Shown here piece by piece: positions 29,220 through 35,366 of a DNA stretch of 64,000 nucleotides. The stretch comes from Comamonadaceae bacterium (GTDB taxonomy: Bacteria; Pseudomonadota; Gammaproteobacteria; Burkholderiales; Burkholderiaceae_C). Positions within the stretch are counted from its first letter, which is position 1. The number at the start of each line of letters is the position of its first letter. The stretch covers positions 46,515 through 110,514 of the forward strand of contig CANFYZ010000002.1 of NCBI GenBank assembly GCA_947451385.1, written 5' to 3'. Below the pieces are notes generated by a model. It did no database searches. It was not told the DNA's origin and saw only the letters and a list, made by a program, of their open reading frames with translations. The translations under genes and the position numbers were made by a program.

Positions 29220-32200
29220 ATGTTTGCCCATTTACGCCTCCATTCCGAATTCTCAGTGGTGGATTCCACTTGCCGCCTGGACGAGGTGGTCAAAGCCGCC
29301 GCCGCCGATGGTTTGCCCGCGCTGGCCTTGACCGACCTGAGCAATTTATTCGGCGCCGTCAAGTTCTACAAAGAAGCCCGCAACAAGGGGGTTCAGCCCA
29401 TCATCGGCGCAGAAATTTTTCTGGAAGGTTTGGGTGCGGAGGTGGGCAGCACCTCGCGCGTTTTGTTGCTGGTGCAGAGCACGCAAGGGTATTTGAACCT
29501 GTCGGAATTGCTGGCGCGCGCCTGGACCCAAAACGTGGTCAAAGCGCAGGCCGTGGTCAAGCTGGCGTGGTTGAAGTCTCTGTCCGAAGGCTTGATTTTG
29601 TTGTCCGGCGCACAAGCGGGCCCGGTCGGCCAGGCTTTGGTGCAGGGCGATGAATCCCGTGCGGCCGAAATGGCCTTGCAATTGGCCTCTATTTTTCCGC
29701 ACCGTTTTTACCTGGAACTGCAACGCGCCGGCCGGCCGGAGGATGCGGTGCAAGTTGCGGGCGCCGTGCGCTTGGCGGCCCGCCTGAGCCTGCCGGTGGT
29801 CGCCACCCACCCGGTGCAGTTCATGCACCAAGACGACTATGAAGCGCACGAAGCGCGGGTGTGTATTTCGGAGGGCGAAATCCTGGGCAACCAGCGCCGT
29901 GTGCGCAAATTTACCGGCGAGCAGTATTTCAAAACCAGTGCGCAAATGTGCGCATTGTTTGCGGACGTGCCCAGTGCGCTGGCCAACACCTTGGAAATCG
30001 CCAAGCGCTGCAACTTGTCGCTGGTGCTGGGCAAGCCGCAGTTGCCCAACTTCCCGATTCCGCCTGTGAATGGCGTGGTGATGTCGGTGGAAGATTATTT
30101 TCGCCACGTCTCACACGAAGGCCTGGAAGCCCGCTTGCGCCACCTGTACCCGAATGATGACCGGCGCCAAGCCGAACGTCCGCGTTATGCCGAGCGCTTG
30201 GAGTTTGAGCTGAACACCATTTTGAAAATGGGTTTCCCAGGTTACTTTTTGATCGTGGGGGACTTTATTCAATGGGCCAAGAACAACGGCTGCCCGGTCG
30301 GCCCTGGGCGGGGCTCGGGTGCAGGGTCATTGGTCGCCTATGCATTGAAGATCACCGACCTCGACCCCTTGCAGTACAACCTGCTGTTCGAACGATTCTT
30401 GAACCCTGAGCGGGTCTCCATGCCCGACTTTGACATTGACTTTTGTCAGACCAACCGGGACCGGGTGATCGAATACGTCAAAGACAAATATGGCCGTGAT
30501 GCGGTGTCACAGATCGCCACCTTCGGCACCATGGCCGCGCGTGCGGCGATCCGCGATGTGGGCCGCGTGTTGGACATGAGCTACACCTTTTGCGATGGCA
30601 TCAGCAAGCTGATTCCCAATAAGCCAGGTCAGCACATCACCATTGCCGGTGCGATCGAGGTTGAGCCCATCTTGGCCGAGCGCTTGGCCAAAGAAGACGA
30701 AGTCAAAACGCTGCTGGAGTTGGCGCAAAAGCTCGAAGGCATGACCCGCAACGTGGGCATGCACGCCGGGGGCGTGCTGATCGCGCCAGGCAAATTGACT
30801 GATTTTTGCCCGCTCTACCAACAGCCCGGCAGCACTTCGGCGGTGAGCCAGTACGACAAAGATGATGTGGAGGCGATTGGCCTGGTCAAGTTCGACTTTT
30901 TGGGCTTGGCAACGCTGACGATTTTAGAAATCGCCCGCGAATTCATCATTCAGCGCCACAAGGGGCAAGAGCAATTTGCCTTTGAAAACATCGCGCTGGA
31001 TGACGTGGCGACCTACAAGCTGTTTGCAGAAGGCAAGACCGAAGCGGTGTTCCAGTTTGAAAGTCCGGGCATGCAGCGCATGTTGAAAGATGCGCGCCCC
31101 AGCCGGCTAGAAGATCTGATTGCCCTGAACGCTTTGTACCGCCCGGGCCCGATGGACCTGATCCCCAGTTTTGTGGCCCGTAAACATGGGCGTGAAGTGA
31201 TTGAATACCCGCACCCGCTGGTGGCGGAGATGCTGTCAGAGACCTACGGCATCATGGTCTACCAAGAGCAGGTGATGCAGACGGCGCAGATTTTAGGCGG
31301 CTACAGCCTCGGCGGCGCCGACATGCTGCGCCGTGCAATGGGAAAAAAGAAGGCCGAAGAAATGGCCGAGCACCGCGCTATTTTCCGTGCGGGTGCGGCC
31401 AAGAACGACATCAGCGAAGCCAAAGCCGACGAGGTGTTTGACTTGATGGAAAAGTTCGCCGGTTACGGCTTCAACAAGTCGCATGCCGCGGCGTATTCTT
31501 TGCTGGCGTACCACACCGGCTGGCTCAAGGTGCATTACACCGCCGAGTTTTTCTGCGCCAACATGACGGTGGAAATGGACGACACCGACAAGCTCAAGGT
31601 GTTGCACCAAGATGCTTTGAAATTCGGCCTGAGCTTTGATCCGCCGGATGTGAACCGCGGGGGGTACCGCTTTGAGCCGGTGTCGGACAAAGTCATCCGC
31701 TACGGTTTGGGCGCCATCAAGGGCACGGGGCAGCAAGCGATTGAGGCCATTGTCAAAGCCCGAACCGAGGGCGGCCCGTTCAAAAGTTTGTTTGATTTTT
31801 GCGTGCGTGTGGACCGCAGCCGCTTGAACAAGCGCACGGTGGAAGCCTTGATCAAGGCTGGCGCATTTGATTCTTTGCACATGAACCGTGCCTCGCTGTC
31901 GGCCTCGGTGGACCGGGCGTTTGACTTTGCGGCAGCCACCTTGGCCAATGCCCACCAGGGCGGCCTGTTTGACATGATGGGCGACGACGACCATGGCTCC
32001 AGCACCCAAGAGCCCGACCTGGTGGAAATGACCCCTTGGGGTATCAAAGAGCGGTTGATGTTTGAAAAAGCGGCTGTGGGCTTTTACCTGTCGGGCCATT
32101 TGTTCGATGCCGTCGAGCGCGAGGTGCGTCAGTTTGTACGGCGCAAGATCGATGATTTGATCGACAGCCGCGAACCGCAGTTGTTGGCCGGCATCGTCAG

Positions 32201-32705
32201 CGATATCAAAATCATCAACGGCCAGCGTGGCAAGGTGGCGATTTTTAAACTGGACGACAAGACCCTGGCGATGGAAGCCACGGCTGACGAGAACCTGATC
32301 AACTCAGCGCGCCACATCTTGAAAGAGGACGAGTTGATCATCGTCATGGCGAAGATGCAGATGGATCGTTTTTCGGGTGGTTTCCGCTTGAAGATGGAGC
32401 AAATTTGGGACTTGCCCACGGCCCGTTGCCGATTTGGTAAATATTTGCGCGTGGCGGTCAACGGTCGTGCACCCGAGGTGGCGCGGCTGGTCCAAGCTTT
32501 TCCGCCGCAGCGAGAGATGACCGATCAAGGCGAGTTGGTGCGCGGCTTGCCGGTGCGCTTGGCCTTGTCGCGCCAAGGCGAGGGGATTGCGGCCCGGGCT
32601 GAAGTGCAGTTGGGCGAGCAAGCCAAATTTTTCCCCACCGATGCCGCTTTGGCCAGCTGGATGGCGCAAGCCGAGGGCGGTCAGGCTGTGATTGCTTACG
32701 ACTGA
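29220..32705 (+). CDS. dnaE: DNA polymerase III subunit alpha
   Basis: FAHLRLHSEFSVVDS PHP start; GPGRGSGAGSLVAYAL; MPDFDIDFCQTNRDRVI; 1161 aa. Confidence 0.97.
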   Translation: MFAHLRLHSEFSVVDSTCRLDEVVKAAAADGLPALALTDLSNLFGAVKFYKEARNKGVQPIIGAEIFLEGLGAEVGSTSRVLLLVQSTQGYLNLSELLARAWTQNVVKAQAVVKLAWLKSLSEGLILLSGAQAGPVGQALVQGDESRAAEMALQLASIFPHRFYLELQRAGRPEDAVQVAGAVRLAARLSLPVVATHPVQFMHQDDYEAHEARVCISEGEILGNQRRVRKFTGEQYFKTSAQMCALFADVPSALANTLEIAKRCNLSLVLGKPQLPNFPIPPVNGVVMSVEDYFRHVSHEGLEARLRHLYPNDDRRQAERPRYAERLEFELNTILKMGFPGYFLIVGDFIQWAKNNGCPVGPGRGSGAGSLVAYALKITDLDPLQYNLLFERFLNPERVSMPDFDIDFCQTNRDRVIEYVKDKYGRDAVSQIATFGTMAARAAIRDVGRVLDMSYTFCDGISKLIPNKPGQHITIAGAIEVEPILAERLAKEDEVKTLLELAQKLEGMTRNVGMHAGGVLIAPGKLTDFCPLYQQPGSTSAVSQYDKDDVEAIGLVKFDFLGLATLTILEIAREFIIQRHKGQEQFAFENIALDDVATYKLFAEGKTEAVFQFESPGMQRMLKDARPSRLEDLIALNALYRPGPMDLIPSFVARKHGREVIEYPHPLVAEMLSETYGIMVYQEQVMQTAQILGGYSLGGADMLRRAMGKKKAEEMAEHRAIFRAGAAKNDISEAKADEVFDLMEKFAGYGFNKSHAAAYSLLAYHTGWLKVHYTAEFFCANMTVEMDDTDKLKVLHQDALKFGLSFDPPDVNRGGYRFEPVSDKVIRYGLGAIKGTGQQAIEAIVKARTEGGPFKSLFDFCVRVDRSRLNKRTVEALIKAGAFDSLHMNRASLSASVDRAFDFAAATLANAHQGGLFDMMGDDDHGSSTQEPDLVEMTPWGIKERLMFEKAAVGFYLSGHLFDAVEREVRQFVRRKIDDLIDSREPQLLAGIVSDIKIINGQRGKVAIFKLDDKTLAMEATADENLINSARHILKEDELIIVMAKMQMDRFSGGFRLKMEQIWDLPTARCRFGKYLRVAVNGRAPEVARLVQAFPPQREMTDQGELVRGLPVRLALSRQGEGIAARAEVQLGEQAKFFPTDAALASWMAQAEGGQAVIAYD

Positions 32706-32714
32706 GTCGAGAAT

Positions 32715-33950
32715 TTAAAGGGCGGGGTGGGCCAAAGCCCAGCTGCCGTCGACATCCCCTCGGACGACGCCAATCAGCGTAATTGGCGAAGAGGGGTCGG
32801 CAGCCACCACAGCGGTGTCCAAATGGGCATCTGTTTTGGTCAGATAACCGTTCAGCCCCATTATTTTTTGCTGGCCATTGACCGTGACGACGTCGGCGGC
32901 ATCCACAAAGGCCCAGCTGGGGGACGTGGTGACAGGGCGGTTCAAATAATATTTCAGCAGACCCAGAACATCACTCAGGTTGACCACCCCATTGGCGTCA
33001 AAGTCAGCAGCGACCAGGTTGAATGGAGACGCGTAATCGCTGGGCAGCTCTTTGCCTAGATAAACTTTCAAGGCGGCCAGCACATCGGTGAGGGAAATGC
33101 CTGCATCAGCTTTGGTGGAAAAAGGCGTCTCCACCGACGGGTTGATTTGGCTGCTGTCGGTGAGGTCCGCGTTCGCGACCGTGAATTGACCTGTGGAATC
33201 TGAGACGGCGGGGGTGTTGGCGCCAATCGCCACGGTCACACCCGCGATAGGCACTGGGGAGAGGCCTTTCCAGTGCACGACCTGACCTGAAACATCCACG
33301 CCGCCCGAACCACCATCAGCGGGCGTCACATTGAATTGCAAATCATAGGCACTGCTGGATTCGACTTTGCCGTCTGAAACTTTGAATTTCAAATGGTCAT
33401 AGTTGGTGCCGCTGCTTTTGGGGGTGTAGCTGAAACCCAGGTCATACATGGATTCCCAGCTGATGACCTGGCCCAGGGCGACGGCCACCCCACCCAAGGT
33501 CAATGCGCCTTTGAGCGGCAATTGGGTGACTGTGATGGAGTGAAATGAGTCCCCATCGATGTCGCTGAAGGAAAAAGCGTCGGGAAGGATGCCAATAGGC
33601 GATTTCGCCACCCCTTCCAGCAGCGCATAGTTACTGGTGGGCCGGTGGGTGTCCTCCAGCACGAGCAACCCGGGCTCCAGGGCGGAGGAAGCGGTGTTCT
33701 TGCTGTCTCTAACTACAAAGGCCAGCTCCTCGTGCAGGGCCTCGGTTGAATTGGCAGCGGGTGTAAATTGGAGAAAACCTGCCGCCAAATCTGCGGCCGA
33801 AACTTCATAGCCCCCTGTAGGGATGACGAACGCGTTATTTTTGAATGTCAGCTCACCACTGAGGGGCAGAGTCAATAAAGAAATGCCCTGCAGGGTGTCG
33901 TTGGAATCGGCATCGTTGAAGGGGAAATCGGCCGCCTTGAAGGTATACAC
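32715..33950 (-). CDS. Cadherin/adhesin-like repeat fragment with carboxypeptidase-regulatory-like and dockerin-like C-terminus (probably 5'-truncated)
   Basis: Repeat-like VYTFKAADFPFNDADSNDTLQGISLLTLPLSGEL; VSGQVVHWKGLSPVPIAGVTVAIG; dockerin-like ISLTDVLAALKVYLGK...AADFDANGVVNLSDVLGLLKYYLNR; terminal RGDVDGSWA. GTG start, no signal peptide. Confidence 0.7.
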   Translation of the reverse strand: MYTFKAADFPFNDADSNDTLQGISLLTLPLSGELTFKNNAFVIPTGGYEVSAADLAAGFLQFTPAANSTEALHEELAFVVRDSKNTASSALEPGLLVLEDTHRPTSNYALLEGVAKSPIGILPDAFSFSDIDGDSFHSITVTQLPLKGALTLGGVAVALGQVISWESMYDLGFSYTPKSSGTNYDHLKFKVSDGKVESSSAYDLQFNVTPADGGSGGVDVSGQVVHWKGLSPVPIAGVTVAIGANTPAVSDSTGQFTVANADLTDSSQINPSVETPFSTKADAGISLTDVLAALKVYLGKELPSDYASPFNLVAADFDANGVVNLSDVLGLLKYYLNRPVTTSPSWAFVDAADVVTVNGQQKIMGLNGYLTKTDAHLDTAVVAADPSSPITLIGVVRGDVDGSWALAHPAL

Positions 33951-34133
33951 CTCACCGGTGGCGAGGTAAACCGTTTGAGACCCCGCGGCGGGCTGAAGAT
34001 CCGGCGGTGCGGCCGCAGAGGGCCCGTGGGTTAGGTCGCGGTGCGCTGAATTGGCGCCGCAAACTGACTTCGGTCAACTGTTGCGCTTGACCGTCATGAT
34101 TAAATACTTTGGATTCATTTCAAGGGATTTTTT

Positions 34134-35366
34134 ATGTATTGGCAGGGTGCACTGTCAGCTTTGGCCATCGGCATTCTGGTGGGGATCGTGCGCGAACGCC
34201 GTCTGCCGACGGAGCAGAGCCAAGCCGGTCTGCGTACCCATGCCTTGGTGGCGATTTTGGGCTATGTGGCCTGGGGTTTGGGGGTCTGGCCCTTCATGGG
34301 TTTGCTGGCCGTGGTGGGCGCGTTGGTCTTCACCGGTTACCGCGCCACGGCGCCCCAAAATCTGGGCTTGACGGGTGAGGTGGCGGTTTTGGTCACCCTT
34401 TTTCTTTCCGCCCTGGTGCAGCAAGAACCGGCCTTGGCCGTGGGCCTGGGGGTGCTGGTGGCCAGTTTGTTGGAGTTCAAGCAGCTCAGCCACCGCTTGA
34501 CGCGGGAATGGATCACCCAGCAGGAAATACAGGACGCTTTGGTCTTGGCTGTGGCGGCTTTGGTGGTCATGCCGCTGTTGCCGGCGCAAGCGATCGATCC
34601 TTGGCATGTGCTGCTTCCGACCACCTTGTGGCGGATCGTGGTATTGGTCATGGCGGCCGGCATGGTGGGTCACTTGGCGCAACGCGTGTTGGGGCTGCGC
34701 TGGGGATTGCCGGTCGCGGGCTTTTGCTCAGGGCTGGTGTCCTCCACCGCCGCGTTGGTTCATCTGGGCCACAAGGCACGCCAGGACCCCAGCCTCACTT
34801 ACAGCGCCAGCGCCTCTGCGCTGCTGTCCAACTTGGCTTCTTTGCTATTGATGCTGGGCGTCATAGGGGCGGTCTCGTCCACTTTGTTGCGTGCCGTGGC
34901 CGTGCCCATGGCGGCGGCCTGCGCGGCTTTGCTGGCCGGCGCTTTGGTGTGCATGTGGTTTGCTGTGGCTTCGGCAGCGACGTCCATGGCTTTGCAAGAC
35001 AGCGCCTTCAAACTCAGCCATGCCCTGTTTTTGGCTTTGCTTATGGGGGGCGTGTCGCTGCTGTCGGCCGGCTTGCAAGCGGTTTTTGGTGATGCCGGGG
35101 TGTTCGTGACTGCGGTGTTGGTGGCCATCGCCGAAGTCCATGCCGCTGCCGCCAGCGTCGCGCAAATGAGCCTGCGCAGCGAGGTGTCCCTGGCGGTCTC
35201 GGCCTGGAGCGTTTTGGCGGTTTTGGCGGCCAGCGCCATGGCCAAAACGGTCTTGGCTTTTGTCAGTGGCGGGACGGGGTTTGGCTGGCGTGTGGGTGCC
35301 GGCTTGGCCGGCATGGTGGGCGCCGCCGTCTTGACCCTGCGCTGGCTGCCCCTGTCGGGGTCCTAG
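34134..35366 (+). CDS. MgtC/SapB-DUF4010 family membrane protein
   Basis: N-terminal ALAIGILVGIVRERR...GLRTHALVAILGYV typical MgtC/SapB; C-terminal multi-TM region like DUF4010. Confidence 0.85.
   Translation: MYWQGALSALAIGILVGIVRERRLPTEQSQAGLRTHALVAILGYVAWGLGVWPFMGLLAVVGALVFTGYRATAPQNLGLTGEVAVLVTLFLSALVQQEPALAVGLGVLVASLLEFKQLSHRLTREWITQQEIQDALVLAVAALVVMPLLPAQAIDPWHVLLPTTLWRIVVLVMAAGMVGHLAQRVLGLRWGLPVAGFCSGLVSSTAALVHLGHKARQDPSLTYSASASALLSNLASLLLMLGVIGAVSSTLLRAVAVPMAAACAALLAGALVCMWFAVASAATSMALQDSAFKLSHALFLALLMGGVSLLSAGLQAVFGDAGVFVTAVLVAIAEVHAAAASVAQMSLRSEVSLAVSAWSVLAVLAASAMAKTVLAFVSGGTGFGWRVGAGLAGMVGAAVLTLRWLPLSGS

What the first reader, a model, noticed from the sequence alone, without database searches (positions are those of the whole stretch)
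32715..34097. 5'-truncated adhesin-like gene with a dockerin-like C-terminus and an in-frame TGA at 34074-34076
The ORF begins at GTG 33950 in the middle of a repeat domain (..LATGEVYTFKAADFPFND..) with no signal peptide. The same frame stays open upstream for 41 codons (PKSVCGANSAHRDLTHGPSAAAPPDLQPAAGSQTVYLATGE), then hits a single TGA seven codons after an in-frame ATG (34097). Only about 36 bp separate that ATG from the divergent gene. This looks like the 3' remnant of a much larger surface protein, or a reservoir of C-terminal modules.
Basis: partly seen in the sequence, partly recalled or inferred. Interest (0 to 1): 0.6.

Follow-up and report, generated by a model that had tools for sequence, protein, structure and literature searches.

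The report
Start-less relic of secreted surface protein
A freshwater Limnohabitans genome carries a headless copy of a secreted surface-protein gene. The copy itself is probably dead, but its intact end belongs to an unnamed family of C-terminal modules that look like a calcium-binding "dockerin" cut in two, with the last residues of the protein completing the fold.

Summary
A 452-codon open frame (32715-34073, minus strand) has no ATG, GTG or TTG before codon 42. It is cut off by a TGA at 34074-34076, with ATGs at 34097 and 34118 beyond it. Coding signal starts abruptly near 34005, at a cadherin-like repeat boundary. The frame encodes two such repeats plus an intact ~200-aa C-terminal module. 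In the sister species G070, dnaE and the DUF4010 gene are 7 bp apart, so these 1,428 bp are extra to this lineage. Best reading: a start-less, probably untranslated relic. G102 has a second, independent orphan tail, at a locus where the window's own genome keeps a full-length gene.

"No signal peptide" is no evidence of truncation. The tail family (10 of 90 Limnohabitans genomes) lies at the extreme C-terminus of otherwise unrelated proteins without signal peptides (M10 protease/RTX, cyclophilin, lectin). In four genomes tail genes lie beside type I secretion genes. "Reservoir of modules" is not supported: no donor or recipient DNA was found.

New point: the terminal GDVDGSW supplies the half calcium loop missing before helix 1. 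Moving it there raises the Pfam Dockerin_1 score by 6-9 bits; scrambled controls do not. The fold is predicted with confidence, but secretion and calcium binding are untested.

The parts
32706..34133 (.). 1,428 bp present here but absent from the sister species between dnaE and the DUF4010 gene (7 bp there)
   Evidence: G070 L115 dnaE TGA 1426-1428, DUF4010 ATG 1436; same next gene (80% identical) beyond
32715..34073 (-). open frame X (452 codons plus stop), no start codon before GTG 33950; relic gene
34074..34076 (-). in-frame TGA that closes the frame upstream
34095..34118 (-). two in-frame ATGs (34116-34118 and 34095-34097) followed by the TGA; neither has a clear ribosome-binding site
34008..34133 (.). 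stretch without coding signal in any minus-strand frame; now serves as the intergenic/5' region of the DUF4010 gene
33654..33992 (-). cadherin-like repeat 1 (Cadherin_3 best match, below cut-off), complete to within about 5 residues
33324..33635 (-). cadherin-like repeat 2
32718..33320 (-). conserved C-terminal module (tail): beta-sandwich, helix 1, calcium loop 2 and helix, beta insert, C-terminal strand and half loop
33060..33092 (-). tail helix 1 (in GISLTDVLAALK), with invariant D79 as position 12 of the split calcium loop
32946..33005 (-). intact calcium loop 2 and helix (DFDANGVVNLSDVLGLLKYY)
32739..32759 (-). GDVDGSW terminal motif: first half of the split calcium loop 1
29220..32705 (+). 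dnaE, convergent flank
34134..35366 (+). DUF4010 protein gene, divergent flank

Best explanation
X is a start-less relic of a type-I-secreted surface protein gene, lodged between dnaE and the DUF4010 gene in this Limnohabitans lineage. Its upstream part was lost by deletion or by insertion of a fragment, so it is most likely not translated. What remains is two complete cadherin-like repeats and an undamaged C-terminal module, which suggests that the loss is fairly recent. In intact relatives the same module ends many unrelated secreted proteins. Inferred mechanism: it is the C-terminal export and folding end of type I secretion substrates. It leaves the cell first and unfolded, and folds outside on calcium. 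Its last residues (GDVDGS) reach back to helix 1 to complete a split dockerin-type calcium loop. Shown here: no start, empty site, C-terminal position of the family, predicted fold, and the profile test of the split loop. Inferred: export by the type I secretion system, calcium binding, and loss of expression of X.
For: No start codon before codon 42, and TGA upstream. Codon-usage signal appears only from about 34005, where the first repeat starts. Sister species G070 has dnaE and DUF4010 7 bp apart. In G102, at the zwf-tctC locus where the own genome has a 1,348-aa gene, only a short N-terminal piece and an out-of-frame intact tail remain. Other broken copies exist in G034 and G079. Full-length members nearly all have an ATG within about 40 codons of the frame start. 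Family: motif 2-8 or 31-39 aa from the stop in almost every member; no signal peptide in the members read; next to TolC/ABC/HlyD genes in G028, G023, G034 and G103. Tail fold pLDDT 90, pTM 0.86; best PDB match X-module-dockerin 5g5d_B, E 1.2e-3, probability 0.96; dockerin profile hits to 6e-7. Split-loop test, native / moved / scrambled bits: 18.4/24.1/17.9, 22.5/30.2/21.4, 15.9/25.0/16.3.
Against: No intact orthologue of X at this locus is known, so truncation is not proved by comparison. The first repeat is complete almost to the residue, which a random cut would give only about one time in ten (rough estimate). The genome is a 107-contig draft and reads were not available, so a sequencing or assembly error near 34005-34076 is possible. 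X keeps every invariant residue of the tail, as a working gene would. G070 is an 81%-complete assembly.
Confidence: 0.68

Rival explanations
1. X was always a short secreted protein (about 20-residue leader, two repeats, tail) and either carries a recent start-region mutation or only looks broken because of a sequencing or assembly error.
For: The first repeat is complete; the tail is undamaged; short members of about 355-409 aa exist (L044, L037); type I substrates need no signal peptide.
Against: No frame upstream of about 34005 shows coding signal; neither ATG has a clear ribosome-binding site; the gene is absent in the sister species.
Confidence: 0.22
2. X is a silent cassette, a store of C-terminal modules used by recombination to change the ends of other surface proteins.
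For: Several genomes hold orphan or broken tails beside intact ones; the family is modular, one tail on many different proteins.
Against: No DNA match to X in its own genome and only two short patches elsewhere in the genus; own paralogues are 39-49% identical in protein and form another clade; a constant tail is an odd thing to vary.
Confidence: 0.04
3. X is translated, from GTG 33950 or by reading through the TGA.
For: The frame is intact for 452 codons.
Against: GTG 33950 lies inside repeat 1 and would remove its first strand (residues 32-38); it has no properly spaced ribosome-binding site; the stretch between the TGA and about 34005 has no coding signal.
Confidence: 0.06

Closest known systems
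Dockerin type I (PF00404), in particular X-module-dockerin of CipA (PDB 5g5d chain B)
   Same: Beta-sandwich followed by the dockerin loop-helix motif; sequence-profile and fold matches; several family members pass the Pfam cut-off.
   Different: The calcium loop before helix 1 is missing and its first half lies at the C-terminus; X itself stays below the cut-off in native order (15-18 bits against 22.9); no Pfam cohesin partner was found in 16 congeners.
Type I secretion (RTX/LapA-like) substrates
   Same: No N-terminal signal peptide in the members read, conserved C-terminal end, RTX repeats in several members, genes beside ABC/HlyD/TolC operons.
   Different: The end is a folded dockerin-like module of about 200 aa rather than a short unstructured signal; no NCBIfam model covers it.
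Type IX secretion C-terminal sorting proteins (BFVD A0A6J5M064, 'Secretion system C-terminal sorting domain')
   Same: Best viral-library fold match over the whole module (211 columns, E 4e-6, query TM 0.51). From memory, Bacteroidota proteins with a GDVNGS-like motif after a dockerin are common; not tested here.
   Different: Limnohabitans is a betaproteobacterium and the tail genes go with type I, not type IX, genes.

Membership tests
Dockerin type I | two contiguous calcium loop-helix repeats, score above Pfam cut-off | tested here: not met
   X 15.4-18.4 bits against 22.9 in native order; only loop 2 is contiguous. Some paralogues pass (26.6, 24.0, 23.9). With the terminal motif moved before helix 1, X reaches 24.1.
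Dockerin type I | calcium ligand residues conserved | tested here: met
   Invariant columns include D79, D106, D117, D189, G192 and S193.
Dockerin type I | cohesin partner in the genome | tested here: not met
   PF00963: 0 of 16 congeners at E 0.01; a diverged cohesin cannot be excluded.
Type I secretion substrate | no N-terminal signal peptide; conserved module at the extreme C-terminus | tested here: met
   N-termini of members, by inspection; motif-to-stop distance 2-8 or 31-39 aa in almost all members.
Type I secretion substrate | linked ABC/membrane-fusion/TolC genes | tested here: met
   Family: beside tail genes in G028, G023, G034 and G103. X itself is not linked; own genome has two such transporters elsewhere.
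Type I secretion substrate | secretion depends on the transporter and on the C-terminal module | not testable with these tools
   Needs an experiment.
RTX protein | nonapeptide calcium repeats (PF00353) | tested here: not met
   None in X; present in the C6 and C1 paralogues.
Pseudogene/relic | no functional start, loss relative to relatives | tested here: inconclusive
   No start and no upstream coding signal; empty site in sister species; no intact orthologue to compare, no expression data.

The most novel reading that the evidence does not exclude
The tail is a new kind of type I secretion end. A circularly permuted (split) dockerin has its first calcium loop closed only by the last residues of the chain, so that the end of the exported protein acts as a calcium-triggered clasp that starts folding outside the cell. 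One patchily distributed Limnohabitans module thereby exports and caps proteases, lectins, isomerases and giant adhesins.
Probability: 0.3. Interest if true: 0.65.

Novelty: new variant of a known kind. Interest (0 to 1): 0.38.

Why it matters
The relic itself is ordinary. Its intact end points to an unnamed family of C-terminal modules that no Pfam or NCBIfam model covers as a whole. If the split-dockerin reading holds, it shows how a dockerin fold can be used without a cohesin, as the terminal folding clasp of type-I-secreted proteins, in an abundant freshwater genus. It would also give annotators a marker for secreted proteins that carry no signal peptide.

Tried and rejected
Mobile-element origin: no target duplication or terminal repeats were found, and the module is absent from plasmids, phage records and viral contigs. 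Duplication from an own paralogue: rejected by DNA search and tree. Frameshift from another frame carrying the N-terminus: no coding signal upstream in any frame. Cohesin-dockerin docking: no Pfam cohesin. Synteny through the DUF4010 gene: outside G070 it was not found next to dnaE, and G015 breaks at this point. A model of the two repeats was only moderate (pLDDT 68).

Full report
Observation. The minus-strand frame 32715-34073 is open for 452 codons and is closed upstream by TGA 34074-34076. ATGs at 34095-34097 and 34116-34118 lie in the same frame beyond the TGA. Between the TGA and GTG 33950 there is no ATG, GTG or TTG, and by inspection no CTG or ATH codon. The distances to the divergent gene are as stated; that gene is a DUF4010 protein and the convergent neighbour is dnaE.

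What X contains. The coding part is two cadherin-like repeats and a C-terminal module. Pfam sees Cadherin_3 and Big_9 weakly and a sub-threshold Dockerin_1. Aligned with adhesin repeats, repeat 1 is complete from about residue 23-28, that is 33992-34007. A codon-usage log-odds scan shows coding signal in this frame from about 34005 downwards and in no frame above it. So the gene body starts abruptly at a domain boundary, without a start codon.

Locus history. The genus is Limnohabitans by its named members (taxonomy). The sister species G070 (93% identical DnaE C-terminal part, 69% identical DUF4010 protein, 80% identical next gene) has dnaE TGA, 7 bp, then the DUF4010 ATG. Here 1,428 bp lie between them. 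In other congeners examined dnaE is followed by other genes, and G015, close by a partial DnaE match, breaks at this point. Whether X came in or was lost in G070 is not decided. No donor DNA exists in the held genus genomes beyond two short patches in Bal53. In a tail tree X groups with Bal53 tails (support 0.82), apart from the four own paralogues.

A second orphan tail. In the window's own genome a 1,348-aa RTX/M10-type gene lies between zwf and a tctC-type gene (gene names by inspection). In G102 (CAIWWN contig 265) the flanks align at 84-88%, but between them only a short N-terminal piece and an out-of-frame tail remain, the tail aligning at 79% DNA identity. G034 and G079 hold further frame-broken tails. 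Loss of the body with survival of the tail therefore recurs in this family, which supports reading X as a relic.

The tail family. A profile of 22 tails finds it in 10 of 90 Limnohabitans genomes, own included, with 1-8 copies each. One further genus in a family sample has it; the order and phylum samples gave only the own genome. Those wide searches scored only the best 7-8 candidates per genome, so the spread outside the genus is a lower bound. The GD(V/I)DGS motif lies 2-8 or 31-39 residues from the stop in almost every member. What precedes the tail varies: RTX repeats with an M10-type peptidase, cyclophilin, C-type lectin, Ig-like repeats. The N-termini read show no signal peptide. TolC/ABC/HlyD genes lie beside tail genes in G028 and G023, about 5 kb away in G034, and an HlyD gene lies beside one in G103. 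The own genome has two related transporters, one 58% identical to the Bal53 one. Type I export is therefore likely, and the missing signal peptide of X means nothing.

Fold of the tail. AlphaFold gives pLDDT 90 and pTM 0.86. The best PDB match is the X-module-dockerin of CipA, E 1.2e-3, probability 0.96, with low global TM. Profile search against PDB sequences finds dockerins down to 6e-7. Invariant columns include D79, D106, D117, D189, G192, S193 and a few structural residues. Loop 2 (D106 to D117) is a complete dockerin loop. Helix 1 carries the position-12 aspartate (D79), but positions 1-6 are missing before it; the C-terminal GDVDGS has exactly that half. Placing the terminal motif before helix 1 raised the Dockerin_1 score in all three members tested, from 18.4 to 24.1, 22.5 to 30.2 and 15.9 to 25.0 bits, with scrambled prefixes at 17.9, 21.4 and 16.3. 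This is a sequence test of a split or circularly permuted dockerin.

Limits. No reads, no expression data, draft genome, no intact orthologue of X. The literature searches found no paper on such tails in Limnohabitans, within an open-access library only. The Bacteroidota comparison is partly from memory.

Noticed in passing
L142:4023-4571 (G102, CAIWWN010000265.1): Orthologous locus of the own C6 gene reduced to a short N-terminal piece and an out-of-frame intact tail: a second, independent orphan tail.
   Followed up: yes
L044:13634-16708 (G034:C8): Lipoprotein-like protein (VSCGGGG) with the dockerin-like module near its N-terminus instead of the C-terminus (112 bits), beside tail genes; possibly an outer-membrane-anchored relative.
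   Followed up: partly
L044:1318-2579 and L156:1-3370: Further frame-broken tail copies in G034 and G079; could be decay or assembly errors.
   Followed up: no
L039, L040, L041, L042, L046, L047: A long tail type carries about 33 more residues after GDVDGS, ending in QFGIY or QWG; the short type stops within 8 residues. The two types form separate groups in the midpoint-rooted tree.
   Followed up: partly
L144:8564-10609 and L149:8567-10609: The same tail gene at the same locus in two Limnohabitans MAGs, next to a glucokinase-like gene: a case where selection on an intact member could be measured.
   Followed up: no
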